From assembly GCF_016894445.1 (NCBI RefSeq), contig NZ_CP056775.1:4948001-5012000 (forward strand): 64,000 nt of DNA, in the 5' to 3' direction. The position numbers and the translations under genes were made by a program. Below, in pieces: positions 12,280-42,159 of this stretch (the first letter of the stretch is position 1; each line of letters opens with the position of its first letter). This DNA comes from Dyadobacter sandarakinus (GTDB taxonomy: Bacteria > Bacteroidota > Bacteroidia > Cytophagales > Spirosomataceae). The notes beneath the pieces are model-generated. The model did no database searches and was not told where the DNA came from. It saw only the letters and a list, made by a program, of their open reading frames with translations.

Positions 12280-14220
12280 ATGAAAATCAATGCGTTTCCC
12301 CTCCATATTTTTGTTTTGCTGTCTCTGTTTGCCACGCCTGCACCTGCACAGGACGATGAGCAGGTAACCCGCTGGAAAGGCTTTGAAAAGGTGACCTTTA
12401 CCTTCCGGGACCGTGCCGCCTGGTACGTCAGGCCAGCCCATGCGAAGGAAGGAAATCCCTGGGTATGGCGTGCACACTTCCCCGACTGGCATACCGAGAT
12501 GGACAGCATTTTGCTGACGCGTGGCTTCCACATTGCCTATGTGAATACCAATGACATGTTTGCCCACCCCGCGGCCATGCAGGTGTGGGATGCATTTTAT
12601 GATTTTCTGGTAAAAGAAAAACATTTTTCGCCCAGGGTCGCGCTGGAAGGCGTGAGTCGCGGAGGCCTTTATGTATATGGCTGGGCCAAAAGAAATCCGG
12701 ATAAGGTAAGCTGCATTTATGCCGAAGCCCCCGTATGTGATCCCAGAAGCTGGCCTGGCGGCAAAGGTAAAGGACCAGGTTCGGAGAGTGACTGGCAAAG
12801 CTGGCTCCGCCTGTTCGGCAAAAAGGAGGCAGAGGCGGCTGCATTTACCGACATTCCGTTAAACGATCTGGAAGGACTTGCTGCATTCAAAGTACCCGTA
12901 CTGCATGTGCTCGGACTGGACGATCAGCTGGTTCCTCCTTCCGAAAACAGCGACCTGCTGATTCAAAATTACCTGCGCGCAGGCGGACCGGTAAGTGTAT
13001 ATCCGATGACCCGCGGCCCGCAGACCTTACAGGGTCATCACTTCCCGATTGAACACCCCGCCCGGTTTGCAAACTTTATAGAACAGCATAGCTTTCCGGT
13101 ATCCAGGCCGCTGGATCGTACAGCTTACATACAACCTAATGCGGGCCTGGGAAATGCATTTGAAAAGTTCAGAAAAGAGAAAAAAGGGACTGTGGCATTT
13201 CTGGGCGGATCGATCACGCATAATCCCGGGTGGCGCAACAAGGTTATGCAGTACTTGCAGGAGCATTTTCCGGATACTGAATTTAATTTTATTGCCGCTG
13301 GAATTCCCTCCCTGGGCAGTACCCCGCATGCATTCCGGTTTGAGAAAGATGTGCTCGCAAAAGGTATCCCCGACCTGCTTTTTCTGGAAGCTGCCGTGAA
13401 TGACCGTACCAATGGCTTTTCCGAAAAAGCGCAGGTACGTGCCCTGGAAGGTATATTGAGGCATTTGTATAAAAAAAATCCCAAGGCAAATGCCATTCTG
13501 ATGGCTTTCGCTGATCCGGATAAGAATGCGGACTTTGCGGCTGGCAGGGTGCCCCGGGAAGTAGCCGTGCATGAGCAGGTAGCCCGGCATTATGGGGCCG
13601 CATTTATCAACCTCGCCAGAGAAACTTACGATCGCATCCAGGCAGGAGAATTTACATGGGAATACGATTTCAAAGACCTGCATCCCTCACCTTTCGGACA
13701 GGAAATCTATGCACAAACGATTAAGGAATTGCTGAAAATGGAACCTGCACCTTCCAATATGCCAGCCAAGCTTCCCGCACTCCTGGATCCTTTTTCATAC
13801 GAAAACGGTCGCTATCATTCCGTTAGTGAAGCGAAAAAGCTGGACAGGTTCTCGGTGGTAAATGCGTGGCATCCCCGCGATTCGACGGGTACCCGCCCGG
13901 GGTTTGTGGATGTACCCGTGCTTGCCGGGGAAGATGCAGGAGCCGCGTTTGATTTTACATTTAGCGGAAGAGGCGTGGGGATCGCGATTGTATCGGGTCT
14001 GGACGCAGGCAGTATTACATTTTCAGTGGATGGTAAAAAGCCGCAGCACCTCGACCTTTTCACAACATGGAGCCCGCAGCTGCACCTGCCCTGGTACCTT
14101 ATGCTCAACGATCAGCTGCCGCCCGGCAAGCACCGCCTTCATGTCACGATTGATCGCAAAGCCAATGCGAAAAGCACGGGAACAGCCTGCCGGATTGTTT
14201 ACTTTCTGGTAAATGAGTGA
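12280..14220 (+). CDS. Secreted two-domain esterase: alpha/beta-hydrolase plus SGNH hydrolase
   Basis: This 646-residue protein has a signal peptide (to about residue 23) and two different hydrolase folds. Residues 25-275 form an alpha/beta-hydrolase with nucleophile Ser126 in GVSRGG, an Asp in LGLDDQLVPP and a His in GHHFPIEHP. Residues 300-490 form an SGNH hydrolase with Ser311 in LGGSIT, a block-III Asn in LEAAVNDR, and Asp466/His468 in DLHPS. A C-terminal beta-rich segment (residues 510-646) looks like an accessory binding domain. Both catalytic sets are complete. Removal of acyl groups from plant or algal polysaccharides is a reasonable inference. Confidence 0.85.
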   Translation: MKINAFPLHIFVLLSLFATPAPAQDDEQVTRWKGFEKVTFTFRDRAAWYVRPAHAKEGNPWVWRAHFPDWHTEMDSILLTRGFHIAYVNTNDMFAHPAAMQVWDAFYDFLVKEKHFSPRVALEGVSRGGLYVYGWAKRNPDKVSCIYAEAPVCDPRSWPGGKGKGPGSESDWQSWLRLFGKKEAEAAAFTDIPLNDLEGLAAFKVPVLHVLGLDDQLVPPSENSDLLIQNYLRAGGPVSVYPMTRGPQTLQGHHFPIEHPARFANFIEQHSFPVSRPLDRTAYIQPNAGLGNAFEKFRKEKKGTVAFLGGSITHNPGWRNKVMQYLQEHFPDTEFNFIAAGIPSLGSTPHAFRFEKDVLAKGIPDLLFLEAAVNDRTNGFSEKAQVRALEGILRHLYKKNPKANAILMAFADPDKNADFAAGRVPREVAVHEQVARHYGAAFINLARETYDRIQAGEFTWEYDFKDLHPSPFGQEIYAQTIKELLKMEPAPSNMPAKLPALLDPFSYENGRYHSVSEAKKLDRFSVVNAWHPRDSTGTRPGFVDVPVLAGEDAGAAFDFTFSGRGVGIAIVSGLDAGSITFSVDGKKPQHLDLFTTWSPQLHLPWYLMLNDQLPPGKHRLHVTIDRKANAKSTGTACRIVYFLVNE

Positions 14221-15960: not shown

Positions 15961-18900
15961 ATGGCTATAAAAGTTGCTATTTCGCATAAAACCAAGTACA
16001 AGTTTGACCGGAGTGTTTCGCTGTCGCCCCATATTTTCAGGCTGCGGCCTGCGCCCCATTCCAGGACGCCTATCGAAGGGTACTCGCTGAAAATAAAGCC
16101 TGAAAATCATTTCATTAACTGGCAGCAGGATCCATTTGGAAATTACCAGGCGCGGGTAGTGTTTCCCGAAAAGACAACCGAGCTCAGCATTGATGTAGAG
16201 GTGATCGCCAAGCTGCAGGTCATTAATCCCTTCGACTTTTTTGTGGAGGATTATGCCGATATGTTCCCGTTTGATTACGATGCGGGGCTGAAAAAAGAAC
16301 TGGGCCCCTACCTGGAACCGCGGGAAGCTGGTCCGAAGCTGATGAACTGGGTCAGCAGCATGAAGATGGCCAGGTCCATGAAGACGGTTGATTTCCTGGT
16401 TCATCTCAATCGGGAGCTGTACAATGCGATCCGCTACAATATCAGGATGGAAGCCGGTGTACAAACCTGTGAAGACACGCTCAACATCCAAAGCGGTTCC
16501 TGCCGCGACTCGGCCTGGCTGCTCGTACAAATCCTGAGGCACCTGGGCATTGCGGCCCGGTTTGTGTCGGGGTACCTGGTGCAGCTTACTTCGGATATCA
16601 AGTCGCTCGACGGTCCTTCCGGCCCTGAGGAAGACTTTACGGATCTGCACGCCTGGACGGAAGCCTATGTGCCGGGAGCGGGCTGGATCGGGCTCGATCC
16701 TACTTCGGGACTTTTTGCGAGTGAGGGGCACATTCCTCTTTGCTGCACACCCGATTATGCGAGCGCAGCACCGGTTTCGGGCGCTACCGACATTTGCGAA
16801 GTGACTTTTGAGTTTGATAACCGCGTTTTCAGGATACATGAAGATCCGCGCGTCACTAAACCGTATACCGAGGAGCAATGGGCTACGGTCATGCAGGTAG
16901 GAGAGGATGTGGAGCGCGACCTGCAGGAAAATGACGTGAGGCTCACCATGGGCGGAGAGCCCACATTTATCTCCATCGACGACTATGAATCGCCGGAATG
17001 GAATACTGCAGCCGACGGACCTCTGAAGCGGCAGCTGGCGTACGATCTTTCACTTCGCCTCAAAAAACGGTTTGCCCATGGCGGCCTGCTGCATTTTGGT
17101 CAGGGTAAATGGTACCCGGGCGAAGCTTTCCCGCGCTGGCAGTATGCATTGTACTGGAGAAACGACGGTGTGCCCATGTGGCGGAATGACGAGCTGGTAG
17201 CTAAAGAAGCGCAAACGAAATATAGCTTTCAGGATGCAGAACGGTTTATGACCGAGCTGACGAGGTTTCTGGGCATTGATCCCAATAATATTACTCCTAC
17301 CTACGAAGATCCAGTTTACTGGGCTATGGAGGAAGGTAAGCTGCCCGTCAATGTGGATCCATTGAAGGTCAACCTGAAAGATTCAATTGAAAGGAGAACA
17401 CTGGCCAGACTGCTCGAAAAAGGGCTTAATAATCCCACAGGCTTTGTTTTACCTGTAAAATGGGACGAAAAAAAGCAGCACTGGTCCAGCACGGCTTGGC
17501 AGTTCCGGCGTAACCACTGTTTCCTGGTGCCGGGCAACTCTGCCATAGGCTACCGCCTGCCGCTCGACTCACTCCCTGAAATTGCAAAAGAACACCGCGA
17601 GCAGCCCGTGGAACGGAGCCCGTTTGAGGACCTGCCTTCCCTGGGCGATTTCCGGGCGGGTGTGCAGGCGAGGTACGGAGCGGTGGCACCAGCTTATGAG
17701 CTGCCTCTGAATGTTTTGGAAGGGGGAGAAGAGGAAGAAGGGAGGAAGGAGGAGGGAGTAAAGGAAAACAAATTGTTGTTTGATGTGCCGGTTATCAAAA
17801 CGGCATTGTGCGTGGAGGAGCGCGATGGTATCCTCTATATTTTTCTCCCGCCTACTGATTACCTGGAATATTACCTGGACCTGATTGCATCCATTGAGGC
17901 AACTTCCGAGAAGCTGGGAATGCCCGTACGCATAGAGGGATATCCTGTACCTTCCGACAGCCGCGTACAGAAGCTGATCGTAACGCCAGACCCGGGTGTG
18001 ATCGAGGTGAACATTCACCCGGCCAAAAACTGGCAGGAGCTGGTCGACAATACCAGTGCATTGTACGAAGAGGCATTCTTTTCAAGACTGGGAACCGATA
18101 AGTTCATGGTGGATGGTCGCCACGTAGGTACCGGCGGCGGCAACCATGTGACCATTGGCGGCGCCAAACCTTCGGACAGTCCGATCCTCAGGCGGCCCGA
18201 CCTGCTGAGGAGCCTGGTAACTTACTGGCAGCACCATCCGGCATTGAGCTACCTGTTTGCGGGGCCATTTATCGGGCCCACCAGCCAGGCTCCGCGCATT
18301 GACGAAGGCCGGGATGAAAAGTTATACGAGGTAGAAATCGCATTTGAACAGATCCCGGAAGACGGAGAAGTGCCTTTCTGGATGGTGGACCGCATTTTCA
18401 GGAACTTGCTGGTGGATATTACCGGCAATACCCACCGTTCCGAATTTTGCATGGACAAGCTTTATTCTCCCGATTCATCGTCGGGCAGACTGGGGATACT
18501 GGAATTCCGAGCATTCGATATGCCGCCGCACAAGCATATGAACCTGGTGCAGACACTGCTGGTGCGTGCGCTGATTGCCAAGTTCTGGAAGCAGCCTTAC
18601 AAGCACAAGCTGATCCGCTGGGGAACTGAGCTGCACGACCGTTTCCTGCTGCCGCATTTTGCTTATATGGATATGGTGGATGTTGTCAATGACCTGAAAG
18701 AGGCCGGCTACCATTTTGATATCTCCTGGTTTGATCCCTTTTTCGAGTTCCGCTTTCCGCATTATGGAGGGATCAAAGTGGATAATATTGAACTGGAAAT
18801 CAGGCTGGGCATTGAGCCCTGGCATGTGCTCGGTGAGGAGCTTTCCAACTCGGGTACTGCGCGGTTTGTGGATTCGTCACTGGAAAGGATACAGGTAAAA

Positions 18901-19383
18901 GTGAGTGGTTTTGTAGAAGGCCGCCATATCCTGGTTTGTAATGGATGCCGGGTTCCGCTTCGCTCCGCGGGTATCAAGGGAGGTTTTGTGGCCGGAGTAC
19001 GCTACAAAGCCTGGAATCCGCCCTCGGCTTTGCATCCCACGATCGGGGCGGATGCTCCGCTGACCTTTGACATTGTAGATACGTGGAACAACCGGATCCT
19101 GGGCGGATGTACTTACTTTGTTTCCCACCCGGGCGGACGCAGCTTTGATACGCATCCTGTTAATAGCTTTGAAGCAGAGTCCAGGAAAATCGCCCTTTTC
19201 CAGGGATTCGGGCATACGCCTTCTGCCCGGCAGGAGGTGCCGATTCTTGAAAAGAATACCGGTAGCGTGTCGCGGTTTGTAGCCGAAACCAAAAAGGATA
19301 TGAAGAGCGATACGCCCATTGAGCTCATTGATCCCGAGTATCCGAATACTTTGGATTTGCGTAAATTCTGGAAATCGAAATAA
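15961..19383 (+). CDS. Transglutaminase-like protease domain fused to DUF2126 ligase-like domain
   Basis: This 1140-residue cytoplasmic-looking protein begins with a transglutaminase N-terminal strand domain (1-80) and a transglutaminase core with Cys181 (GSCRDSAW), His230 (LHAWTEAY) and Asp246 (LDPTSG). From about residue 310 it continues as DUF2126/COG4196 (LTMGGEPTFISIDD, VDGRHVGTGGGNHVTIGG near 720, HRSEFCMDKLYSPDSSSG near 825-842, LEFRAFDMPPH). DUF2126 was proposed in comparative genomics to be a circularly permuted glutamine-synthetase-like ligase. It is followed by the ATP-grasp/Alpha-E gene after 51 bases. Together they suggest ATP-dependent peptide-bond formation plus peptide cleavage or transfer. 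A low-complexity Glu/Lys insert lies near residues 590-605. Confidence 0.93.
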   Translation: MAIKVAISHKTKYKFDRSVSLSPHIFRLRPAPHSRTPIEGYSLKIKPENHFINWQQDPFGNYQARVVFPEKTTELSIDVEVIAKLQVINPFDFFVEDYADMFPFDYDAGLKKELGPYLEPREAGPKLMNWVSSMKMARSMKTVDFLVHLNRELYNAIRYNIRMEAGVQTCEDTLNIQSGSCRDSAWLLVQILRHLGIAARFVSGYLVQLTSDIKSLDGPSGPEEDFTDLHAWTEAYVPGAGWIGLDPTSGLFASEGHIPLCCTPDYASAAPVSGATDICEVTFEFDNRVFRIHEDPRVTKPYTEEQWATVMQVGEDVERDLQENDVRLTMGGEPTFISIDDYESPEWNTAADGPLKRQLAYDLSLRLKKRFAHGGLLHFGQGKWYPGEAFPRWQYALYWRNDGVPMWRNDELVAKEAQTKYSFQDAERFMTELTRFLGIDPNNITPTYEDPVYWAMEEGKLPVNVDPLKVNLKDSIERRTLARLLEKGLNNPTGFVLPVKWDEKKQHWSSTAWQFRRNHCFLVPGNSAIGYRLPLDSLPEIAKEHREQPVERSPFEDLPSLGDFRAGVQARYGAVAPAYELPLNVLEGGEEEEGRKEEGVKENKLLFDVPVIKTALCVEERDGILYIFLPPTDYLEYYLDLIASIEATSEKLGMPVRIEGYPVPSDSRVQKLIVTPDPGVIEVNIHPAKNWQELVDNTSALYEEAFFSRLGTDKFMVDGRHVGTGGGNHVTIGGAKPSDSPILRRPDLLRSLVTYWQHHPALSYLFAGPFIGPTSQAPRIDEGRDEKLYEVEIAFEQIPEDGEVPFWMVDRIFRNLLVDITGNTHRSEFCMDKLYSPDSSSGRLGILEFRAFDMPPHKHMNLVQTLLVRALIAKFWKQPYKHKLIRWGTELHDRFLLPHFAYMDMVDVVNDLKEAGYHFDISWFDPFFEFRFPHYGGIKVDNIELEIRLGIEPWHVLGEELSNSGTARFVDSSLERIQVKVSGFVEGRHILVCNGCRVPLRSAGIKGGFVAGVRYKAWNPPSALHPTIGADAPLTFDIVDTWNNRILGGCTYFVSHPGGRSFDTHPVNSFEAESRKIALFQGFGHTPSARQEVPILEKNTGSVSRFVAETKKDMKSDTPIELIDPEYPNTLDLRKFWKSK

Positions 19384-19434
19384 GTATGCAGTGCCCGGAA
19401 GCCCTCTTGAACCATCATTTATCCTGAAAGTACA

Positions 19435-21990
19435 ATGCTGACCGATGTTGCCGTGAACCTTCTGCAGGCTTACCGGAGTGGACTGGCTTCCTATGATGAA
19501 GTCCTGGATATGCATGGACGTGTGAAGCCGCACTGGAATGCACTTTTTTCATCATTGGAAAAACTGGGCATCCATGAGCTGAAAAGCAGGAATCAGGAGA
19601 TTATCAGCAAGCTGCGGGAAAACGGTGTTACCTATAATGTGTACGGCACGCCTGACGGCATGAACCGCCCCTGGCAGCTAGACCCTATTCCTTTTCTCAT
19701 TGAACAGAAAGAATGGAACGGGATCGCCAAAGGCCTGCAGCAAAGGGCCGGGCTGCTCAACCTGATCATGAAAGACCTTTACGGTCCCAGAAAGCTGGTC
19801 AGGGATGGCATTATCCCTGCAGAGCTGGTGTACGATAATACAGGGTTTTTCAGGAGCTGTGCCGATGTACGCCTACCCGGCGAGCAGCTGGCGCTTTTTG
19901 CAGCGGATATGGCCCGCGGTCCCGACGGGCAGATGTGGATTGTTGATAACCGTACCCAGGCACCTTCGGGATCGGGGTATACCCTTGAAAATCGGATCGT
20001 GATGAGCAAGCTGCTGCCTGAGCTGGCGGATGGGATGTATGTGAGCAAACTTTCACCTTTTTTCAACAGCCTGCAGAACAAGGTTTCCGTGTTGTCGAAT
20101 AAAAGTAAGGATGCTCCCAATATCGTATATCTCACTCCCGGCCCGAACAATGAAGCCTATTTTGAACATGCTTACCTGGCTTCGTACCTGGGCTACACGC
20201 TTGCACAGGGAGAGGATCTGCTTGTCAGGGATGGTTGTGTGTGGCTGAAATCCATTGATGGTTTACAAAAAGTAGATGTGATCGTACGCCGGATCGACGA
20301 CGACTGGTGTGATCCGCTGGAACTCCGGGAAGATTCACGACTGGGCGTACCCGGACTTTTACAGGCGATCCGGATGGGTAATGTGCATGTACTGAATCCT
20401 CCGGGATCCAGCGCATTGGAGAACCATGCATTTCTGGCATTCATGGAAAACATCTGCCAGTATTTTCTGAAGGAAAAACTACTGATGCCCTCCGTGGCAA
20501 CCTGGTGGTGCGGACATACCAAGGAGCTCAGCTATGTGCTGGACCACCTGGATGAGCTCATCATCAAAAAAGCCAACCGTAAGACCCGGTACCGCTCGCG
20601 GTATGGCCGGCAGCTGAGCGCTGCCGAAAAAGATGAGCTGCGGCGCGAGATACTGGCGAGGCCGCGGGAGTTTATAGCGCAACAGGAAGTAAGCCTCTCT
20701 ACCACCCCCTCACTGATCGACGGGCACATTGAACCCCGCTATGCCGTGCTCAGGGCATTTCTGGTAGCCGATGAAAACGGGTACCATGTAATGCAGGGCG
20801 GATTGACGAGGAGCTCGGCGGTAAAAGACCGTTTTGTGGTGTCCAATCAGTATGGAGGATTGTCCAAGGATACCTGGATTGTGTCGGACAAGACGCAGGG
20901 AATGCAGGAAAAGATCGTTCTGGCTGCTCCGCCGCCTGTCAACAAGCATATTTCGCTTCCAAGCCGGAGTGCCGAAAACCTCTTCTGGGTAGGCCGCTAC
21001 TGTGAGCGTACCATGGCGGTGATCAAGTTTATGAACATTACCATTAACGTGCTCAACCTCGACCGCAACTTCGGGGGGTATGCACGGCAGGAGCATATTA
21101 AAATACTTTTACAATCACTGACCCATCTTTCAGCTGCCTACCCGGGCTTTCTGGATGAGCAGGAGCAACTATGGGCTGACCCTTACAGGGAAATTATTGA
21201 TCTTGTATCCAATACTTCCAGGCCCGGTACCATCGCATCCAATATCGGGTCGTTCCTGAATGCAGTGGGCGCAGTGCGCAATCAATGGGATCTGGAAGTG
21301 TGGCGTATCGTAGACCTGATTGACAAGGGATACCGTGAAATCCGCAATGCGCAGGCGCTGGTAAACAGCAACAATATTCAGCGGACACTCGACAGTTTGT
21401 ACAACAACATGCTGACCTTCCTGGGCGTAATTACGGAAAGTATGCCGCGCGACAACAGCTTTCTGCTGCTCGACACGGGCAAGCTGATTGAGCGGATCAT
21501 GTCGCGGGTAAGTGTCATACAGTCCAACTTTGGTACAAAAAATACGGAAAGTGTTGAAAGTGAACTCATAGAGGCTACATTGATCAACCACCACCTGCTC
21601 GTGAACTACCGGCAGATCTACAAGTCTCAGCTGAATGCAGAGGCAATGCTGGATATGATCCTGCTGGAAAGTTCGCTGCCTTTTTCATTGGTACATATGC
21701 TCGATGAGCTCGAACGCAATGTGGCCCGGCTGCCTGCCACCACGCGCGGCGAGCGGCTCAACGAGGCCCAGAAGCATGTATTGCAGGCTTCTACGCTGAT
21801 CAAACTGGCCAATATTCAGGACCTGACCAGGCACAATGCACAAATGGAGCGGGAAAAGTTATTTAACCTGCTTTCCGAAGTAGCGGGGCTGATCTCGTCT
21901 GTGTCGGTTACATTGACCAATCTTTATTTTACCCACACCATGCCGCATTCGTTTTTTGAACCGGTGGATTACGAAAAAGATGAAATATAG
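19435..21990 (+). CDS. Circularly permuted ATP-grasp fused to Alpha-E domain
   Basis: This 851-residue protein joins two families often encoded separately. Residues 1 to about 500 are the circularly permuted type 2 ATP-grasp (COG2308): NGVTYNVYGTPDGMNRPWQLDP, LKLVRDGIIP-like and VLNPPGSSALENHAFLAFM elements. Residues about 510-850 are the all-helical Alpha-E domain (COG2307), opening with SRSAENLFWVGRYCERTM. ATP-grasp enzymes activate a carboxylate as acyl-phosphate and couple it to an amine; the Alpha-E role is unknown. The stop overlaps the next transglutaminase gene by 11 bases, showing translational coupling. Confidence 0.94.
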   Translation: MLTDVAVNLLQAYRSGLASYDEVLDMHGRVKPHWNALFSSLEKLGIHELKSRNQEIISKLRENGVTYNVYGTPDGMNRPWQLDPIPFLIEQKEWNGIAKGLQQRAGLLNLIMKDLYGPRKLVRDGIIPAELVYDNTGFFRSCADVRLPGEQLALFAADMARGPDGQMWIVDNRTQAPSGSGYTLENRIVMSKLLPELADGMYVSKLSPFFNSLQNKVSVLSNKSKDAPNIVYLTPGPNNEAYFEHAYLASYLGYTLAQGEDLLVRDGCVWLKSIDGLQKVDVIVRRIDDDWCDPLELREDSRLGVPGLLQAIRMGNVHVLNPPGSSALENHAFLAFMENICQYFLKEKLLMPSVATWWCGHTKELSYVLDHLDELIIKKANRKTRYRSRYGRQLSAAEKDELRREILARPREFIAQQEVSLSTTPSLIDGHIEPRYAVLRAFLVADENGYHVMQGGLTRSSAVKDRFVVSNQYGGLSKDTWIVSDKTQGMQEKIVLAAPPPVNKHISLPSRSAENLFWVGRYCERTMAVIKFMNITINVLNLDRNFGGYARQEHIKILLQSLTHLSAAYPGFLDEQEQLWADPYREIIDLVSNTSRPGTIASNIGSFLNAVGAVRNQWDLEVWRIVDLIDKGYREIRNAQALVNSNNIQRTLDSLYNNMLTFLGVITESMPRDNSFLLLDTGKLIERIMSRVSVIQSNFGTKNTESVESELIEATLINHHLLVNYRQIYKSQLNAEAMLDMILLESSLPFSLVHMLDELERNVARLPATTRGERLNEAQKHVLQASTLIKLANIQDLTRHNAQMEREKLFNLLSEVAGLISSVSVTLTNLYFTHTMPHSFFEPVDYEKDEI

Positions 21991-22858
21991 GCTGCTCCAT
22001 AAAACCGAATACAAGTATGCCGAGCCGGTGAACAATTACCAGAGCCTGCTTTGCATTACACCAAGGACTTTGCCCGGGCAGCTTTGCAGCAGTTTCAGCA
22101 TGTCGGTTACGCCGGAGCCATCGCAGATTGTGGAGCGGACGGATTTTTATGGTAATACCGTGCATTACTTTTCACTGCACTCGCCCCACAAGAAGCTGAC
22201 CGTACTGGCAGAAAGCATTGTAGAGCGGCTGGGCGAGGGTACCGGCTCCCTGTTCAGGCAGTCGCAGCTGACTTGCGCGGCAGCCAGGGAGCGTGTGGCG
22301 GCAGACCGGAGCTTACGCATTTCACTCATGGAGTACATGCTGCCCAGTCCGCTGGTCACGTGGAACGATGATATTGCCGGATTTGCCCGCGACTGTTTTG
22401 CAGAGCATACCCTGTTGTTTGATGCGGTACATGCATTATGCAGGAAAATTTATACCGAGTTTGCGTTTGTGCCTCACTTTACAACTGTGAACACGCCTGT
22501 GCGTGAGGTACTGGCCAGCAGGAAAGGGGTATGTCAGGACTTTTCACACCTTGCAATCGCGTGTATACGGAGCTGCGGCTTTGCGGCCCGGTATGTGAGC
22601 GGCTACCTCGAAACCCTGCCGCCCCCCGGCAAGGCCAAGTTGCAGGGGTCCGACGCCTCACATGCCTGGATATCAGTCTACATTCCCGATTATGGCTGGT
22701 GCGATTTTGATCCTACCAATAACATGGTGCCCGGTGAACGGCATATTGTCACTGCATGGGGCCGCGATTACAGCGATGTGCCTCCGCTGAAAGGCATAAT
22801 TTTCAGTTACGGAAAGCATTCATTGTCGGTGGAAGTGGACGTGATACCACTTTCCTGA
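21980..22858 (+). CDS. Transglutaminase family protein (COG1305)
   Basis: From ATG 21980 this 292-residue protein has a transglutaminase N-terminal beta domain (MKYRLLHKTEYKYAEPVNNY) and a papain-like core with Cys185 (GVCQDFSH), His228 (DASHAWIS) and Asp244 (CDFDPTNN). An intact triad suggests an active peptidase or acyl-transferase. An in-frame ATG at 21956 lies deeper in the preceding gene and lacks family similarity. It is the third gene of the ligase cluster; after its stop there is a 198-base gap before pdhB and no Anbu-type peptidase. Confidence 0.93.
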   Translation: MKYRLLHKTEYKYAEPVNNYQSLLCITPRTLPGQLCSSFSMSVTPEPSQIVERTDFYGNTVHYFSLHSPHKKLTVLAESIVERLGEGTGSLFRQSQLTCAAARERVAADRSLRISLMEYMLPSPLVTWNDDIAGFARDCFAEHTLLFDAVHALCRKIYTEFAFVPHFTTVNTPVREVLASRKGVCQDFSHLAIACIRSCGFAARYVSGYLETLPPPGKAKLQGSDASHAWISVYIPDYGWCDFDPTNNMVPGERHIVTAWGRDYSDVPPLKGIIFSYGKHSLSVEVDVIPLS

Positions 22859-36302: not shown

Positions 36303-37649
36303 GTGCAAAATAAGGTTACAATTCTTGGTGGAGGTGAAAGCGGAGTAGGAGCAGCTATTTTGGCTGCTGCGCAGGGTTTTGAGGTTTTCTTGTCAGACTC
36401 CGGGCCGATCAGCGATAAGTACCTAGCGATATTGGACGAGCGGGAAATCTTTTTCGAGCAGGGCGGACATTCACCGGCAAGAATACTTGAAAGTGACCTT
36501 GTTATCAAAAGTCCGGGTATTCCCGACAGTGTACCCCTGGTTCGGGCACTGCTGGATAAAGGTACTCCGGTAATATCAGAAATAGAATTTGCATCAAGGT
36601 ACACCAATGCCAGGCTGATTGCCATCACCGGAAGCAATGGAAAAACTACCACTACTTTACTGACTTACCATTTGCTGAAAACTGCCGGGTTGCAGGTAGG
36701 ATTGGCGGGAAATGTCGGGGACAGCTTTGCCTGGCAGGTAGCTGAGCAGCATTTTGACCACTACGTGCTGGAAGTCAGCAGCTTTCAGCTGGACAATATT
36801 GACAAGTTCAGGCCTTATATCTCCATTCTGTTGAACATTACGCCCGATCACCTGGATCGTTACGGCTACGAATTCCAGAACTATGTGGATTCCAAATTCA
36901 ACATCATACGCAACCAGACTCCGGACGATTTCCTCATTTACTTTGACGGAAGCGACGTCATAAAAAAAGAGCTGGAAAAAAGGGCTGTCCAGCCCGAGCC
37001 GGTAGCTATATCCATTGAGCATGAGGTGCAGGCGGGATCTTATCTTTCCGGCAACACACTGATCAGTCAGATACAGGGAAGAAAATTTGAACAATCATTT
37101 TCAGAACTACCGGTCAAAGGTCCGCATAATGCGATCAATGCACTGGCTGCCATCTCCGCTGCCATGCTGGTAGGTATTGAAGAAAATGTGATACAGGAAG
37201 GAATGAAATCCTTCAAAAATGCTCCGCACCGGCTGGAAGAAGTAGCTGTAAGTGCTGGTGTCACATACATTAACGATTCGAAAGCGACGAACGTCGATTC
37301 CGTATATTATGCATTGGGAAGTTTTGACAAGCCGGTGATCCTGATTGCAGGAGGAGTGGATAAAGGGAACGACTATGACCAGATCAGGGATATGGTGCAG
37401 GATAAAGTGAAAGGGCTTATCATTCTGGGTAAAAAAATTGACAAGCTGCGGGATTACTTTTCAGGAATAGTTTCTGAAATTTATCCTACACAGGACATAC
37501 AGGATGCGGTACGCAAGGCCAGAGAATGGAGCAATCCCGGTGATATCGTGCTGCTTTCGCCCGCCTGTGCCAGTTTTGATCTTTTTAAGAATTATGAAGA
37601 CCGGGGTGATCAGTTTAAGGCTGCTGTCCGGAGTATGATCGGGGAATAA
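36303..37649 (+). CDS. murD: UDP-N-acetylmuramoyl-L-alanine:D-glutamate ligase
   Basis: MurD adds D-glutamate to UDP-MurNAc-L-Ala in the cytoplasm. The 448-residue protein (GTG start at 36303) has a Rossmann N-terminal domain (VTILGGGESGVGAAILAAAQG), the Mur ligase P-loop AITGSNGKTTTTLLTYHLL near residues 110-128, the carbamylated-lysine region and TPDHLDRYGYEFQNYVDSKF, and NDSKATNVDSVYYAL at about residue 325. It is the first gene of the seven-gene cluster. murE and mraY, which usually precede it, are absent. Confidence 0.97.
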   Translation: MQNKVTILGGGESGVGAAILAAAQGFEVFLSDSGPISDKYLAILDEREIFFEQGGHSPARILESDLVIKSPGIPDSVPLVRALLDKGTPVISEIEFASRYTNARLIAITGSNGKTTTTLLTYHLLKTAGLQVGLAGNVGDSFAWQVAEQHFDHYVLEVSSFQLDNIDKFRPYISILLNITPDHLDRYGYEFQNYVDSKFNIIRNQTPDDFLIYFDGSDVIKKELEKRAVQPEPVAISIEHEVQAGSYLSGNTLISQIQGRKFEQSFSELPVKGPHNAINALAAISAAMLVGIEENVIQEGMKSFKNAPHRLEEVAVSAGVTYINDSKATNVDSVYYALGSFDKPVILIAGGVDKGNDYDQIRDMVQDKVKGLIILGKKIDKLRDYFSGIVSEIYPTQDIQDAVRKAREWSNPGDIVLLSPACASFDLFKNYEDRGDQFKAAVRSMIGE

Positions 37650-37668
37650 GGCTAGTTGAGGATACAGA

Positions 37669-38823
37669 ATGAATTTTTTACAAAAGCTCAGGGAAGATAC
37701 GCAGGTATGGTTTATCAAAAACCTCAAAGGTGACCCCTGGATCTGGGGTACCTGCATTGTCATGCTTTTCTGGAGTGTGGTAGTGGTGTACAGCGCGAGT
37801 GTCAAAGATGCTTACAGCCAGATGGGCGGTAATACGGAGTACTTCCTGTATAAACATGTGCTGTTATGCATTATTTCACTGGTGGTCATGTACTTCGTGC
37901 ATAAGATACCCTACATCAAGTTTGTATATGTTACCCGGCTGGCACTTTGGAGCTCAATCCTGCTGCTGCTCTTTACACTTTTTTTTGGTACCTCGGTCAA
38001 TGAAGCCGCACGCTGGATCGAGATCCCGGTGATTGGTCAGCGGTTTCAACCTTCGGAATGGGCCAAAGTCGCCCTGATTGCCCACTTATCCTTGATCCTT
38101 GCACGCCATATCAAAGGTGGCTGGAATACCCGCGAACTGCTTCTTGAACCCCTGGCTCTGGTAGCGCTCGTTTGTGGCCTGATTTTCAGCAGCAATGTAT
38201 CTACCGCGGTTATGCTGGCAGGAATATGCTTTATGCTGATGTTTGTAGGAAAAGTACCTGTCCAGTACCTGCTGTTTACTATGCTTGGACTGGTCTTCTT
38301 TGCCGCGTGCGCTATTTTACTTAAAAAAACACAGCGTTCCGGCACAGCTCAGAGCAGGATTGCCACTTTCCTTGACAATGATGTGGTAGTGTACCAGTCA
38401 CAGCAATCCTATATGGCGATGGCCAGGGGCGGATTATATGGAGAAGGAGTGGCAAAAAGCCGCCAGCGCCGCTTTCTGCCTGAACCACAGAAAGATTTCA
38501 TCTTTGCCGTGGCCGTGGAAGAATATGGTACGCTGGGCGGATCTTTCCTGATTGTTTTGTACCTCATACTGCTCTATCGCGGTCTCAAAGCCATTGAAGC
38601 CACGAAGAGGCCATTTGGAGGGCTGCTATCTGCCGGATTGACGTTTGTCATCGTGAGTCAGGCATTTTCGGCTATGGCTGTTACGGTAGGGCTGGTACCG
38701 GTAACCGGGCAAACACTTCCGTTTTTCAGTCAGGGAGGAACGTCCCTGATTTTTACAGGTATATCCATGGGGATGATCCTGAGTGTGAGCCGGGGAGAGA
38801 TTGTTGAAGAAAAAAGAATTTAG
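37669..38823 (+). CDS. ftsW: Septal peptidoglycan polymerase FtsW (SEDS family)
   Basis: This 384-residue protein has about ten membrane helices. Signatures are the SEDS motifs NEAARWIEIPVIGQRFQPSEWAK, NVSTAVMLAGICFMLMFVG, a periplasmic loop with YQSQQSYMAMARGGLYGEGV, and EPQKDFIFAVAVEEYGTLGG. It ends in LPFFSQGGTSLIFTG. FtsW polymerises lipid II glycans at the septum with its partner penicillin-binding protein. It lies 19 bases after murD and 3 before murG. Confidence 0.97.
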   Translation: MNFLQKLREDTQVWFIKNLKGDPWIWGTCIVMLFWSVVVVYSASVKDAYSQMGGNTEYFLYKHVLLCIISLVVMYFVHKIPYIKFVYVTRLALWSSILLLLFTLFFGTSVNEAARWIEIPVIGQRFQPSEWAKVALIAHLSLILARHIKGGWNTRELLLEPLALVALVCGLIFSSNVSTAVMLAGICFMLMFVGKVPVQYLLFTMLGLVFFAACAILLKKTQRSGTAQSRIATFLDNDVVVYQSQQSYMAMARGGLYGEGVAKSRQRRFLPEPQKDFIFAVAVEEYGTLGGSFLIVLYLILLYRGLKAIEATKRPFGGLLSAGLTFVIVSQAFSAMAVTVGLVPVTGQTLPFFSQGGTSLIFTGISMGMILSVSRGEIVEEKRI

Positions 38824-38826
38824 TCA

Positions 38827-39924
38827 ATGCCGAAACGCGTCATTATCAGCGGTGGAGGCACCGGTGGTCATATTTATCCTGCTATTGCGATTGCCACTGC
38901 CTTACAGCAGCTGGAACCCGACCTCGAGGTTTTGTTTGTAGGAGCTTTGGGGAAAATGGAAATGGAGAAAGTCCCCCGTGCAGGATATGAGATCGTGGGC
39001 TTGCCTATCGTGGGAATAAAAAGATCTTTATCTCCTTCCAACCTGGCTTTTCCAGTCAAGTTGTTTAAAAGTCTTTCCAAAGCAAGACAAATTATCCGCG
39101 ACTTCCGGCCTGACGCTGCCGTGGGAGTTGGTGGCTTTGCAAGCGGTCCTTTGCTGATGATGGCCTCTCTGGCAGGCATTCCTACTCTTATCCAGGAGCA
39201 GAATTCCTATGCGGGCATTACCAACAAGCTCCTGGCCAGAAAAGCCAGGAAGATTTGTGTTGCATACCCGGGAATGCAGGCCTTTTTTCCTGAGCAAAAG
39301 CTTGCCGTACTGGGTAACCCGGTGCGCAATGATATTATTGATATTTCCACCAAAAAAGCCCAGGCACTCGAATACTTTAAGCTCGATCCTAACCGGCAAA
39401 CGCTGTTTGTAATGGGTGGCAGCCTGGGGGCGCGCTCTATCAATGAAAGCATTAATGCAGGCATTGGAGAGCTTGTAAGTTCGGGTTACCAGGTGATCTG
39501 GCAAACCGGTAAGGACTTCGCTGAGAAGGCCGGGATCACGGCAGCATTCTCCGGGAATGATCAGGTACGTGTTTTTGACTTTATATACCAGATGGACCTG
39601 GCATACGCGATTGCTGACGTAGTCGTATCGCGTGCAGGCGCGCTGTCGGTGTCTGAATTATGCCTGGCAGCGAAGCCGGCAATCCTTGTTCCTTATCCTT
39701 ATGCCTCAGAAGATCACCAGACTAAGAATGCGGAGGCCCTGGTGCAGGAGAAGGCGGCAATTTTGATTGAAGACGGGCAAGCCCGGAAAACGTTGGTAAG
39801 CAAGGCAATCGGGCTTTTGCAGGACCCGGCCAGGCAGCAGCGATTAAAGGAAAATATCAGCAAACTGGCGAAACCTTCCGCAGCACGGGATATTGCTTTG
39901 GAAGTATTGAAGTTGATTAACTAA
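38827..39924 (+). CDS. murG: UDP-GlcNAc:lipid I N-acetylglucosaminyltransferase MurG
   Basis: MurG converts lipid I to lipid II on the inner face of the membrane. The 365-residue GT-B protein shows IISGGGTGGHIYPAIAIATAL at the N terminus, AAVGVGGFASGPLLMMASL, TLIQEQNSYAGITNKLL, FVMGGSLGARSINESI and the nucleotide-sugar motif SRAGALSVSELCLAAKPAIL with PYASEDHQTKNAEAL. All are normal. It forms a tight operon with ftsW (3-base gap) and murC (13-base gap). Confidence 0.98.
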   Translation: MPKRVIISGGGTGGHIYPAIAIATALQQLEPDLEVLFVGALGKMEMEKVPRAGYEIVGLPIVGIKRSLSPSNLAFPVKLFKSLSKARQIIRDFRPDAAVGVGGFASGPLLMMASLAGIPTLIQEQNSYAGITNKLLARKARKICVAYPGMQAFFPEQKLAVLGNPVRNDIIDISTKKAQALEYFKLDPNRQTLFVMGGSLGARSINESINAGIGELVSSGYQVIWQTGKDFAEKAGITAAFSGNDQVRVFDFIYQMDLAYAIADVVVSRAGALSVSELCLAAKPAILVPYPYASEDHQTKNAEALVQEKAAILIEDGQARKTLVSKAIGLLQDPARQQRLKENISKLAKPSAARDIALEVLKLIN

Positions 39925-39937
39925 TAAAAAGAGCAGT

Positions 39938-41341
39938 ATGTCGTCGTCCCTCACAAATTGGAAAAACATATACTTTGTCGGCATCGGTGGCATCGGCATG
40001 AGTGCACTTGCGCGGTGGTTCAATGCCAATGGATTTCATCTTGCGGGTTACGACAAAACGATGACACCACTGGTAGGTGCATTGGAGCAGGAGGGCATAG
40101 AAGTCACCTTGAATGATGCAATTGAAACCATACCGCAGGCATTTCGTGAAAATCCGGATGAAACCCTCGTGATTTATACGCCGGCCGTACCGGTGAAGCA
40201 TGTTCAGATGAATTTTTTCAGGGACAATAATTTTATGATCCTGAAAAGGTCGCAGGTACTCGGTTTACTGACGCGGAATCTGAGAACGATAGGTGTGGCA
40301 GGAACACATGGAAAAACGACTACTTCGTCCCTTGTAGCACATATCCTCCGGCATGCCGGGGTTAACAGTACCGCATTTCTGGGCGGTATTACACAAAATT
40401 ATGGGACCAATCTCCTGCTGAACGAGCCTACGGATGAGCTTGAGTCCGTTTTCTGCGTGGTGGAAGCCGACGAATTTGACCGTTCTTTTCTGACTTTATT
40501 TCCGGAAATAGGCATTGTGACCTCTACGGACGCAGATCATCTCGATATCTATGGAGAACATAGTGCCGTGCTGGAATCATTTCGCGAGTATGTGGGTCAG
40601 ATTGACGAGGACGGGATCCTGTTTATGAGAGCAGGGCTTGAAATAGCCAATGCGGCCAAGGCAAAGGTGCAGACGTATGGCCTGAACGAAGGTGACTACC
40701 GTGCTGCCGGCATCCGTATTGACCAGTCCAGATTTGTATTTGACCTGATATATCCGGATGGTACAATTGAGGGCATCCGGATGAGTATACCCGGGTACCA
40801 CAATATTGAAAATGCGATAGCAGCCAGTGCGGTGGCGCTGTACCTGGGTGTTGCAGGTAAACAGGTCAGGAATGCGCTGGAAAGCTATAAGGGCGTGAAA
40901 AGGCGTTTTGAGTACCAGGTCGAGGATGAGGCACACGTTTATATTGATGACTATGCCCATCACCCATCCGAAATTGAAGCATTCCTTACTTCTGTCAAGG
41001 GTTTGTATCCGGGGCGGCACATTACAGCCATTTTCCAGCCTCATCTTTTTACAAGAACGCGTGACTTTGCAGATGGTTTTGGTCAAAGTCTCTCACTGGC
41101 AGACAGGCTTCTTCTGATGGATATCTATCCGGCCCGTGAACTGCCCATTGAAGGAATCACTTCCGAAATGCTGCTTGATAAGGTTTTGATTGATGATAAA
41201 AGGCTTGTAGCCAGAGATGAGATCCTGGATATTTTGCGCAGTCAGGAGACTGATATTGTCGTGACAATAGGTGCCGGAGACATTGATACTTTGGTTACTC
41301 CGATTAAAGACTTGCTTGCCAGTTCATTTACGAATAATTAG
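39938..41341 (+). CDS. murC: UDP-N-acetylmuramate:L-alanine ligase
   Basis: MurC attaches L-alanine to UDP-MurNAc, the first peptide step. This 467-residue protein has the N-terminal YFVGIGGIGMSALARWFNAN motif, the P-loop GVAGTHGKTTTSSLVAHILRH near residues 123-143, VVEADEFDRSFLTLFPEIGIV, TSTDADHLDIYG and the C-terminal IDDYAHHPSEIEAFLTSVK. Length and motifs are standard. It is the fourth gene of the cluster; ftsQ follows after 25 bases. Confidence 0.98.
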   Translation: MSSSLTNWKNIYFVGIGGIGMSALARWFNANGFHLAGYDKTMTPLVGALEQEGIEVTLNDAIETIPQAFRENPDETLVIYTPAVPVKHVQMNFFRDNNFMILKRSQVLGLLTRNLRTIGVAGTHGKTTTSSLVAHILRHAGVNSTAFLGGITQNYGTNLLLNEPTDELESVFCVVEADEFDRSFLTLFPEIGIVTSTDADHLDIYGEHSAVLESFREYVGQIDEDGILFMRAGLEIANAAKAKVQTYGLNEGDYRAAGIRIDQSRFVFDLIYPDGTIEGIRMSIPGYHNIENAIAASAVALYLGVAGKQVRNALESYKGVKRRFEYQVEDEAHVYIDDYAHHPSEIEAFLTSVKGLYPGRHITAIFQPHLFTRTRDFADGFGQSLSLADRLLLMDIYPARELPIEGITSEMLLDKVLIDDKRLVARDEILDILRSQETDIVVTIGAGDIDTLVTPIKDLLASSFTNN

Positions 41342-41366
41342 CAATAGCGTTTTTAATATTACTGAG

Positions 41367-42143
41367 ATGTTACGTAAATTTGACTATCCATGGCTTTTGT
41401 TGAAACGCAGTTTGTGGCTGATTTTGCCAATTGCAGGGATAGGAATGGCCGAAAATAAGCTTGGCAGCCAGCGGTGTAACAATCTGGTAATTTCGATTCA
41501 GGGCGACTCAGGTACCCGGTTTTTGAATCAGATGGATGTACGTATGCTGGTCACTGAAAACGGCGGCGACCCGCTGATGGGCAGCCGGCTGAATGATGTG
41601 GAGCTTCACGAACTGGAACGAAGAGTTCGTCGAAGTAAGTTGATAAAAAAGTGTCAGATATTTCGCGATCTTAGGGGTGACGTTGTGATTGAGGTAGAGC
41701 AGGAAAAGCCGCTTGCGCGATGGATTAACAGTTCGGTAAACGGGGAAGTACGCAACACGTCGGGATACTATATCAGTGACGAGGGCGTTTTTTTTCCATT
41801 ATCGGACAGCTATTCAGCCCGCACGCTCCTTGTTTCAGGGCCCTATTTTAACAATCCTGAAAATCTGAAATCCGGGGAAGGAGCTTCTCTGATGGAGCTG
41901 CTCAAGTACCTGAACGAGGATCCATTCTGGCGGGCACAAGTGTCTGAGCTGATCGTGGACAGGGATGGTGAAATCAGCCTGATGACGGTTTTGGGAGATC
42001 AGGTGATAGAGTTCGGAAAGGCCGATGCATACCAGGCCAAATTCTGGAAGCTGCGGACTTTTTACAATAAGGTTCTGAGTCGGGATTGGGGCAGGTACAA
42101 AAGAATAAATGTTAAGTTTCAGGATCAAATAGTTTGTGAATAG
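41367..42143 (+). CDS. ftsQ: Cell division protein FtsQ
   Basis: From ATG 41367 this 258-residue protein has a short cytoplasmic start, one membrane helix (SLWLILPIAGIGMAENKLG, with unusually few hydrophobic residues at its end), and periplasmic POTRA and FtsQ-type beta domains (LVISIQGDSGTRFLNQMDVRM, ELERRVRRSKLIKKCQIFRD). Sequence is poorly conserved in the family; position between murC and ftsA decides the call. A longer in-frame start at 41271 overlaps murC and is rejected. FtsQ links early and late divisome proteins. Confidence 0.92.
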   Translation: MLRKFDYPWLLLKRSLWLILPIAGIGMAENKLGSQRCNNLVISIQGDSGTRFLNQMDVRMLVTENGGDPLMGSRLNDVELHELERRVRRSKLIKKCQIFRDLRGDVVIEVEQEKPLARWINSSVNGEVRNTSGYYISDEGVFFPLSDSYSARTLLVSGPYFNNPENLKSGEGASLMELLKYLNEDPFWRAQVSELIVDRDGEISLMTVLGDQVIEFGKADAYQAKFWKLRTFYNKVLSRDWGRYKRINVKFQDQIVCE

Positions 42144-42159
42144 TATTCACCATAGAGGT

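What the first reader, a model, noticed from the sequence alone, without database searches (positions are those of the whole stretch)
15961..22858. Transglutaminase + DUF2126 / ATP-grasp + Alpha-E cluster without its peptidase
Three co-directional genes, the last two overlapping by 11 bases, encode a transglutaminase-DUF2126 fusion, an ATP-grasp-Alpha-E fusion and a second transglutaminase. Both transglutaminase triads (C181/H230/D246 and C185/H228/D244) are intact. Comparative genomics (amidoligase analysis by Iyer, Aravind and colleagues) predicted that a circularly permuted ATP-grasp, a circularly permuted glutamine-synthetase-like ligase (here taken to be DUF2126) and Alpha-E, with the Anbu peptidase, form a peptide-tagging or peptide-synthesis system. 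Anbu is not seen next to this copy. Product and target are unknown to me.
Basis: partly seen in the sequence, partly recalled or inferred. Interest (0 to 1): 0.8.

Follow-up and report, generated by a model that had tools for sequence, protein, structure and literature searches.

The report
Degenerate ligase paired with transglutaminase
A bacterial three-gene cluster thought to join amide bonds carries what looks like a worn-out copy of its ATP-using ligase, tied to a cysteine enzyme, while an intact-looking ligase and the partner peptidase sit elsewhere in the same genome.

Summary
Three co-directional genes encode transglutaminase-DUF2126 (1140 aa), CP-ATP-grasp-Alpha-E (851 aa) and a second transglutaminase (292 aa from ATG 21980, 11-bp overlap); both triads are intact. 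'Without its peptidase' is true only locally: the same genome holds two Anbu-like genes (one beside a separate Alpha-E) and a separate CP ATP-grasp with intact motifs.

The main new point is that the window's ATP-grasp is a degenerate paralogue. Separate ATP-grasps (45 sequences) keep E-x-N-x-R, a GGYG loop and further polar residues. Fused ones (60 sequences) have lost them: Asn kept in 0/60, Arg instead in 55/60. The two groups are the sides of one fully supported branch. The fused gene is followed, usually overlapping, by the small transglutaminase in 55/60 loci. That pair persists without DUF2126 (10/10 loci read), and the fused copy nearly always shares its genome with a separate one (9/9; 20/22).

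My reading: the fused protein is a non-catalytic partner of the cysteine enzyme, acting on whatever the intact ATP-grasp/Alpha-E makes; DUF2126 is a separable module. Product and target remain unknown. The overall kind was predicted by Iyer et al. 2009 (recalled; text not held). The GS-like fold of DUF2126 is inconclusive here.

The parts
15961..19383 (+). transglutaminase (aa 1-247, triad C181/H230/D246) fused to DUF2126 putative amidoligase (aa 277-1134)
   Evidence: triad kept in 100/100; many invariant polar residues in 53 aligned sequences
19435..21990 (+). fused circularly permuted ATP-grasp (aa 86-460) plus Alpha-E (aa 508-832), degenerate paralogue ('FUS')
   Evidence: AlphaFold model mean pLDDT 86.4, best fold hit 3n6x
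19945..19959 (+). degenerate presumed metal/ATP motif of the ATP-grasp: D171-N172-R173-T174-Q175 where separate copies have E-D-N-x-R
   Evidence: same ungapped pairing in the pairwise alignment with 3n6x
20584..20595 (+). lost glycine loop: T384-R385-Y386-R387 where separate copies have GGYG
21980..22858 (+). small transglutaminase-like cysteine enzyme ('TGLw', 292 aa from ATG 21980; TTG 21956 is the upstream alternative start), triad C185/H228/D244, overlaps the gene before by 11 bp
   Evidence: next to FUS in 55/60 loci

Best explanation
The cluster belongs to the widespread bacterial circularly-permuted-ATP-grasp / Alpha-E / transglutaminase / DUF2126 amide-bond system. Shown here: its ATP-grasp-Alpha-E fusion belongs to an old branch that has lost the residues conserved in the separate branch, among them the presumed Mg/ATP motif; it stays under purifying selection and overlaps the gene of a small transglutaminase-like cysteine enzyme with an intact triad; a separate ATP-grasp with intact motifs, a separate Alpha-E, a third transglutaminase and two Anbu-like genes lie elsewhere in the same genome. 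Inferred: the fusion does not use ATP. It works as a binding or scaffold partner that presents a substrate (probably the peptide or isopeptide product of the intact ATP-grasp/Alpha-E pair) to the coupled cysteine enzyme, which cleaves or transfers the amide. DUF2126 is a separable module, probably an ATP-dependent ligase. The chemical identity of substrate and product is not known.
For: Residue loss: E172/N174/R176 of separate copies kept 45/45, 45/45, 44/45 but in fused copies 1/60, 0/60, 2/60; GGYG, D437, N468, Q471 and D328-D329-K330 also lost, while 14 of 37 near-invariant polar columns stay at >=54/60. Fused and separate sequences are two sides of one 100%-supported branch. pN 0.114 against pS 0.74 with a genus relative, so it is not a decaying gene. 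FUS is followed on the same strand by TGLw in 55/60 loci, many with -4/-1/-11 overlaps; pair kept in 10/10 loci read (of 12 genomes) that lack DUF2126. Genomes with the fused copy also hold a separate one: 9/9 and 20/22 genomes behind named loci, classed by frame length. Fold: 3n6x, glutathione synthetases, YgiC, GspS. An Anbu-operon ATP-grasp is reported to release phosphate from ATP (PMC6376114, passages).
Against: No biochemistry here; some enzymes with altered metal sites still act. D158, K378 and R440 of the fused copy are mostly kept (53, 53 and 59 of 60), so some ligand binding may persist. Residue roles rest on motif position, recalled GspS residues and a passage on yeast glutathione synthetase (PMC2845819); the profile match to the GspS family is not significant (E 0.26). 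Two genomes behind named loci (MAGs, L097 and L138) show the fused copy without a separate one. FUS lacks an adjacent TGLw in 5 of 60 loci (L087, L119, L143, L144, L158; some at contig ends), and TGLw occurs without FUS in three of 99 loci (L064, L103, L147). A substrate link between the two ATP-grasp types is inferred only; Anbu-operon proteins did not pull each other down in the one published test (PMC6376114).
Confidence: 0.5

Rival explanations
1. Both ligase domains of the cluster are active and together make or attach a peptide.
For: Fold and Pfam membership; DUF2126 has many invariant acidic, His and Arg residues in 53 sequences; D158 and K378 of the ATP-grasp mostly kept.
Against: Loss of E-x-N-x-R, GGYG, D437 and other polar residues in nearly all of 60 fused sequences.
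Confidence: 0.2
2. The fused protein is an enzyme with a new, metal-independent or otherwise changed chemistry that uses the R173/Q175/E296/R313/W358/G360 positions conserved only in its own branch.
For: These positions are newly conserved in the fused branch; purifying selection.
Against: No precedent was looked for; the same pattern would arise from a conserved binding surface.
Confidence: 0.15
3. The fused copy is a regulator of the separate ATP-grasp (a non-catalytic subunit), and its pairing with the transglutaminase gene is incidental.
For: It occurs almost only in genomes that hold a separate copy (9/9; 20/22).
Against: It travels with the transglutaminase: overlapping or adjacent pair in 55/60, kept without DUF2126 in 10/10; the separate copy can be far away, as in this genome.
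Confidence: 0.15

Closest known systems
Anbu operon (ATP-grasp, Alpha-E, transglutaminase, Anbu), as described in PMC5666114 and PMC6376114 (passages)
   Same: Same three protein families next to each other; this genome also carries an Alpha-E-Anbu pair and the other parts at separate places.
   Different: Here ATP-grasp and Alpha-E are fused and degenerate, DUF2126 is added, and Anbu is not at the locus.
Amidoligase / peptide-tagging system predicted by Iyer, Abhiman, Burroughs and Aravind 2009 (recalled; full text not held)
   Same: CP ATP-grasp, DUF2126, Alpha-E and transglutaminase in one neighbourhood, found in several phyla.
   Different: The ATP-grasp at this locus lacks the conserved presumed metal/ATP residues, so the prediction of two active ligases does not fit it. 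I could not check whether the 2009 paper noted inactive copies.
Glutathionylspermidine synthetase / YgiC / eukaryotic glutathione synthetase (circularly permuted ATP-grasp ligases)
   Same: Fold: Foldseek hits to 2io7/2io8, 7uk8, 3kal, 2hgs.
   Different: E-x-N motif absent in the fused copy; extra Alpha-E domain.
rlo operon of Pseudomonas (RloA peptidase, RloB inactive transglutaminase, RloC ATP-grasp; PMC12239564, passages)
   Same: Genetic pairing of an ATP-grasp protein, a transglutaminase-fold protein and a peptidase.
   Different: There the transglutaminase is the inactive membrane part; here the transglutaminase triad is intact and the ATP-grasp is degenerate; homology beyond superfamily was not tested.

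Membership tests
Predicted CP-ATP-grasp / Alpha-E / DUF2126 / transglutaminase amidoligase system | CP ATP-grasp domain present | tested here: met
   Pfam 486.5 bits; fold hit 3n6x E 2.7e-32
Predicted CP-ATP-grasp / Alpha-E / DUF2126 / transglutaminase amidoligase system | ATP-grasp conserved site residues complete at this locus | tested here: not met
   E-x-N-x-R, GGYG and D437 lost; the roles of these residues are partly recalled
Predicted CP-ATP-grasp / Alpha-E / DUF2126 / transglutaminase amidoligase system | A CP ATP-grasp with intact motifs in the same genome | tested here: met
   ORF ending at L019 9172 (C1 5553.7-5555.2 kb), motifs intact
Predicted CP-ATP-grasp / Alpha-E / DUF2126 / transglutaminase amidoligase system | Alpha-E domain present | tested here: met
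   172.9 bits; ER motifs kept, REN-x-R motif lost in the fused branch
Predicted CP-ATP-grasp / Alpha-E / DUF2126 / transglutaminase amidoligase system | DUF2126 has a glutamine-synthetase-like ligase fold | tested here: inconclusive
   no GS among the 50 of 674 Foldseek rows shown; profile score against GCS2 24.6 (cut core) or 25.6 (whole), column-shuffled null of the cut core max 25.3 of 60; positive control GS-GCS2 28.0
Predicted CP-ATP-grasp / Alpha-E / DUF2126 / transglutaminase amidoligase system | ATP-dependent peptide or amide synthesis | not testable with these tools
   no assay
Anbu operon | Anbu adjacent to the ATP-grasp/Alpha-E/transglutaminase genes | tested here: not met
   no Anbu among the neighbours; the genome's two Anbu-like genes lie elsewhere
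Anbu operon | Anbu in the same genome with conserved N-terminal Thr and Asp | tested here: met
   two genes, 59% identical; T2 and D18 kept 21/21, K31 20/21 in the set
Transglutaminase-like cysteine enzymes | Cys-His-Asp triad | tested here: met
   100/100 and 56/56

The most novel reading that the evidence does not exclude
The fused degenerate ATP-grasp-Alpha-E and its coupled transglutaminase form a two-gene 'reader and eraser' (or reader and transferase): a dead ligase that kept its substrate pocket recognises the product made by the intact ATP-grasp/Alpha-E ligase and hands it to a cysteine enzyme, an alternative to Anbu in the same pathway.
Probability: 0.25. Interest if true: 0.75.

Novelty: new variant of a known kind. 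Interest (0 to 1): 0.5.

Why it matters
Anbu, Alpha-E, the CP ATP-grasp and DUF2126 are found in many bacteria and their function is still open (PMC8665760 says that no function is known for Anbu; passages). Showing that one of the two ATP-grasp branches has lost its conserved site residues, and that it is tied to a cysteine enzyme and nearly always shares its genome with a separate copy, tells an experimenter which protein to assay for ATP use, which pair to purify together, and which double mutants to make.

Tried and rejected
Considered: the small transglutaminase simply replaces Anbu. The local association of Anbu with the fused gene is negative (6 both, 10 Anbu only, 41 fused only, 15 neither; Fisher p = 0.015, 72 of 99 loci with at least 5.5 kb on both sides) but six loci carry both, so strict exclusion is rejected.

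Considered: the fused gene depends on DUF2126. In the phylum sample all 9 genomes with a fused-length copy have DUF2126, but in the family sample 11 of the 12 genomes with a second CP ATP-grasp and no DUF2126 carry a fused-length copy and one (G421) a broken one, so strict dependence is rejected. Conversely a few DUF2126 genomes have only one CP ATP-grasp (G064, G158, G162; G313, G315, G338, G352 and the incomplete G307).

GS-like fold of DUF2126: single-sequence and small-profile comparisons and two fold searches did not settle it. The motif order GGEPTF - E682 - GGNHVT - LEFR looks to me like that of GCS2 (read by eye), but scores lie within or at the edge of a shuffled null. Promoter and terminator scans of the locus were at or below chance, and a Bacteroidota-type promoter pattern (recalled) had no match near it. 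Paper searches: DUF2126 gave no paper; inactive or pseudo ATP-grasp wording gave two listings, neither opened; Anbu with ATP-grasp from 2018 on gave none; family names gave 20 listings, of which I saw passages of four (PMC3597751, PMC5491218, PMC12316311, PMC8407117). Iyer et al. 2009 is not held, so absence of this observation from print is not shown.
Full report
OBSERVATION. The window (G000:C1:4948001-5012000 of a single-contig 6.07-Mb genome, 99.6% complete) holds three ORFs on the + strand at the stated place: 15961-19383 (1140 aa), 19435-21990 (851 aa) and 21956-22858 (300 aa from TTG; 292 aa from ATG 21980). Pfam gives Bact_transglu_N, Transglut_core and DUF2126; CP_ATPgrasp_1/2 and Alpha-E; and Bact_transglu_N with Transglut_core. 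Upstream lies a proC-like gene on the other strand, downstream a pyruvate dehydrogenase E1-beta gene.

THE REST OF THE SYSTEM IS IN THE SAME GENOME. A proteasome-family search of the whole genome gives three hits over the cut-off: an HslV-like gene (named by its look, from recall) and two Anbu-like genes, 59% identical to each other. One Anbu (C1 about 3906.5-3907.2 kb) lies directly behind a separate Alpha-E gene; a third transglutaminase lies 5-6 kb away on the other strand. The other Anbu (C1 about 755.9-756.6 kb) follows a diacylglycerol-kinase-like gene. A separate CP ATP-grasp lies at C1 5553.7-5555.2 kb. DUF2126 is single-copy. So the title 'without its peptidase' holds for the locus, not the genome.

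DISTRIBUTION. DUF2126 occurs in 12 of 296 genomes of a phylum sample, in 74 of 200 of a family sample (one of these, G448, only a fragment with stops) and in all 34 genomes of the genus in that sample, own included. In the same 296 genomes Anbu occurs in 22 and a CP ATP-grasp in 117, one of them partial. All 12 DUF2126 genomes and all 22 Anbu genomes are among the 117. DUF2126 and Anbu share 7 genomes (G000, G190, G064, G154, G158, G162, G283); five DUF2126 genomes (G091, G126, G202, G226, G137) have no Anbu match. This sample leans to close relatives of the query.

NEIGHBOURHOODS. I read 20 further stretches from unnamed relatives (L062-L081) and the 80 named loci; one of the 100 (L155) showed no DUF2126 ORF and was dropped, leaving 99. 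Genes are ORFs of at least 120 aa. A fused ATP-grasp-Alpha-E ('FUS') is in 60 of the 99, Anbu in 18. The small transglutaminase is the next gene on the same strand after FUS in 55 of 60 (two contig ends, three other), many with overlaps of 4, 1 or 11 bases; DUF2126 is the gene before FUS on the same strand in 48 of 60. In the 72 loci with at least 5.5 kb on both sides, FUS and the small transglutaminase go together (44 both, 3 FUS only, 2 transglutaminase only, 23 neither; p 1.8e-13), Anbu goes with a separate Alpha-E (15 both, 1 Anbu only, 25 Alpha-E only, 31 neither; p 4e-4) and is rarer beside FUS (6, 10, 41, 15; p 0.015). FUS shows no association with a separate ATP-grasp or Alpha-E at the locus itself (p 1 and 0.63). 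The loci are related by descent, so these p-values are only guides.

THE FUSED ATP-GRASP IS DEGENERATE. I aligned 60 fused sequences (59 loci and the window; one cut-short ORF, L087, left out) and 45 separate ones (44 loci and this genome's own). Numbers of separate copies follow the 482-codon stretch from L019:7724 used in the scripts, which begins six codons before the likely ATG (7742). Separate copies keep E172 45/45, N174 45/45, R176 44/45, G383 and G384 45/45, G386 44/45, D437, N468 and Q471 44/45. In fused copies E172, N174 and R176 are kept in 1, 0 and 2 of 60, D437, N468 and Q471 in 0, 2 and 2; the loop is variable (G384 kept in 19). The Asn position is Arg in 55/60 and the Arg position Gln in 54/60. 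The window has D171, R173, Q175, T384-R385-Y386-R387, V438, S470, Y473. Of 37 polar columns that are 44/45 or better in separate copies, 14 stay at 54/60 or better in fused copies, 13 lie between 27 and 53 (D159 and K377 at 53), and 10 fall to 2/60 or less: R87, E172, N174, R176, D328, D329, K330, D437, N468, Q471. The pairwise match of the window protein with PDB 3n6x, made by another program, pairs the same residues of this motif without a gap. New positions are conserved only in the fused branch, among them R173, Q175, E296, R313, W358, G360. A CP ATP-grasp of fused length on S. meliloti pSymB shows the same change (LSDRTEAPSG), a separate one in Sphingomonas the intact motif and GGYG; the Azospirillum stretch fetched (L166) gave no motif match and was not assessed.

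WHY THESE RESIDUES MATTER. The AlphaFold model of the fused protein (37 sequences, mean pLDDT 86.4, pTM 0.84) hits 3n6x, eukaryotic glutathione synthetases, YgiC and E. coli GspS. A passage in PMC2845819 names Asp130, Glu146, Glu386 and Glu442 as Mg-handling residues of yeast glutathione synthetase. That E. coli GspS uses Asp318, Glu330 and Asn332 is recalled, not read here. The separate-copy profile pairs D159, E172 and N174 with these GspS positions, but the match is not significant by itself (E 0.26). The role of the lost residues is therefore well motivated, not proven.

ONE OLD SPLIT, STILL UNDER SELECTION. In a tree of the 105 sequences the fused and separate groups lie on the two sides of one branch (100% SH-aLRT; quick method; 0 of 500 shuffles as clustered; many rows with unlike letter make-up). 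Against a genus relative (L078), pS/pN are 0.70/0.066 for gene 1, 0.74/0.114 for the fused gene and 0.79/0.163 for gene 3 (dS 2.0 for gene 1, saturated for the others). The Alpha-E part of the fused copies (61, window included) mostly keeps the ER motifs but has lost the REN-x-R motif (R91, E92, N93, R95) and R175 of the 48 separate copies.

WHAT TRAVELS WITH WHAT. Class here is by frame length, not by alignment. In the phylum sample the 9 genomes with a fused-length frame (857-905 codons) all have a separate copy and DUF2126. I then searched 36 genomes. Of these, 24 lie behind named loci: 16 of 17 loci with FUS and no local separate copy, and 8 of 15 with DUF2126 alone. In them 22 have a fused-length frame (833-927) and 20 of the 22 a second match (in G511 in a 983-codon frame, class not checked); the exceptions, L097/G498 and L138/G502, are MAGs. 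The other 12 are the family genomes that one search showed with a second CP ATP-grasp and without DUF2126, so their having two copies is no test; 11 have a fused-length frame (one, G426, of 780 codons) and one (G421) a broken copy. I read ten of these 12 loci: the fused gene and the small transglutaminase are adjacent in 10 of 10 with the same DNRTQ motif, and a translated search with gene 1 found only its transglutaminase part. The fused-transglutaminase pair is thus the minimal unit, and DUF2126 an added module.

FUNCTION HINTS FROM PRINT. In Burkholderia cenocepacia a cluster with DUF404/407, DUF403 and two transglutaminase proteins depends on NtrC (PMC5491218, passages). In Pseudomonas putida PP_2685 (proteasome beta) and PP_2688 (CP ATP-grasp) are in a table of genes that respond to the nitrogen source (PMC8050072, passages). 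A marine metagenome study found these domains together with urea metabolism domains (PMC3597751, passages). The Yersinia bercovieri Anbu-operon ATP-grasp releases phosphate from ATP, and Anbu showed no peptidase activity and no specific complex with the other operon proteins (PMC6376114, passages). In a Sinorhizobium meliloti association study a regulatory region on pSymB of strain SM11 lies by a COG2308 gene (PMC8407117, passage); whether that gene is the fused one was not checked. I saw nothing in print on the fused type as such, but opened only some of the listed papers.

MECHANISM. Shown: gene content, residue loss, the split, adjacency and overlap, and the presence of the other parts elsewhere. 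Inferred: no ATP use by the fused protein; a complex with the small transglutaminase; action on the product of the intact ATP-grasp/Alpha-E. DUF2126 is probably the one ATP-dependent ligase of this cluster (many invariant acidic, His and Arg residues in 53 sequences), but its GS-like fold was not confirmed: Pfam scans of ten members give no glutamine-synthetase-type family; its model is weaker (mean pLDDT 79.1); of 674 PDB fold matches the 50 shown are mostly transglutaminase-fold proteins, none a GS; the viral library gave nothing at E <= 0.001; and profile scores against GCS2 are within or at the edge of a shuffled null.

TAXON. The organism was not identified.

Noticed in passing
L018 8805-10604 (C1 about 754.8-756.6 kb): A second Anbu-like gene stands behind a diacylglycerol-kinase-like gene, away from the other parts of the system.
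   Followed up: partly
L017 8258-11043: The Alpha-E/Anbu pair is divergent from a HerA-like helicase gene (HerA_C 585 bits).
   Followed up: no
L168 1269-11525: On a Sphingomonas plasmid an ATP-grasp, Alpha-E and transglutaminase operon lies near arginyltransferase, threonine ammonia-lyase and urea-carboxylase-associated genes.
   Followed up: no
G490, G304, G308, G448 and G421 (family sample): DUF2126 in pieces or a fragment, or the fused gene broken, in a few family members, which may mean ongoing loss; contig ends may explain some.
   Followed up: no
L097: A contig titled as a Helicobacter pylori MAG carries DUF2126, the fused gene and the small transglutaminase; the title looks like a naming error.
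   Followed up: no
window 12280-14220: A single gene joining an alpha/beta-hydrolase-like part and a GDSL-like lipase part.
   Followed up: no
window 36303-43515: A run of co-directional ORFs with an FtsW-like and a Mur-ligase gene among the two scanned, looking like a division and cell wall cluster.
   Followed up: no
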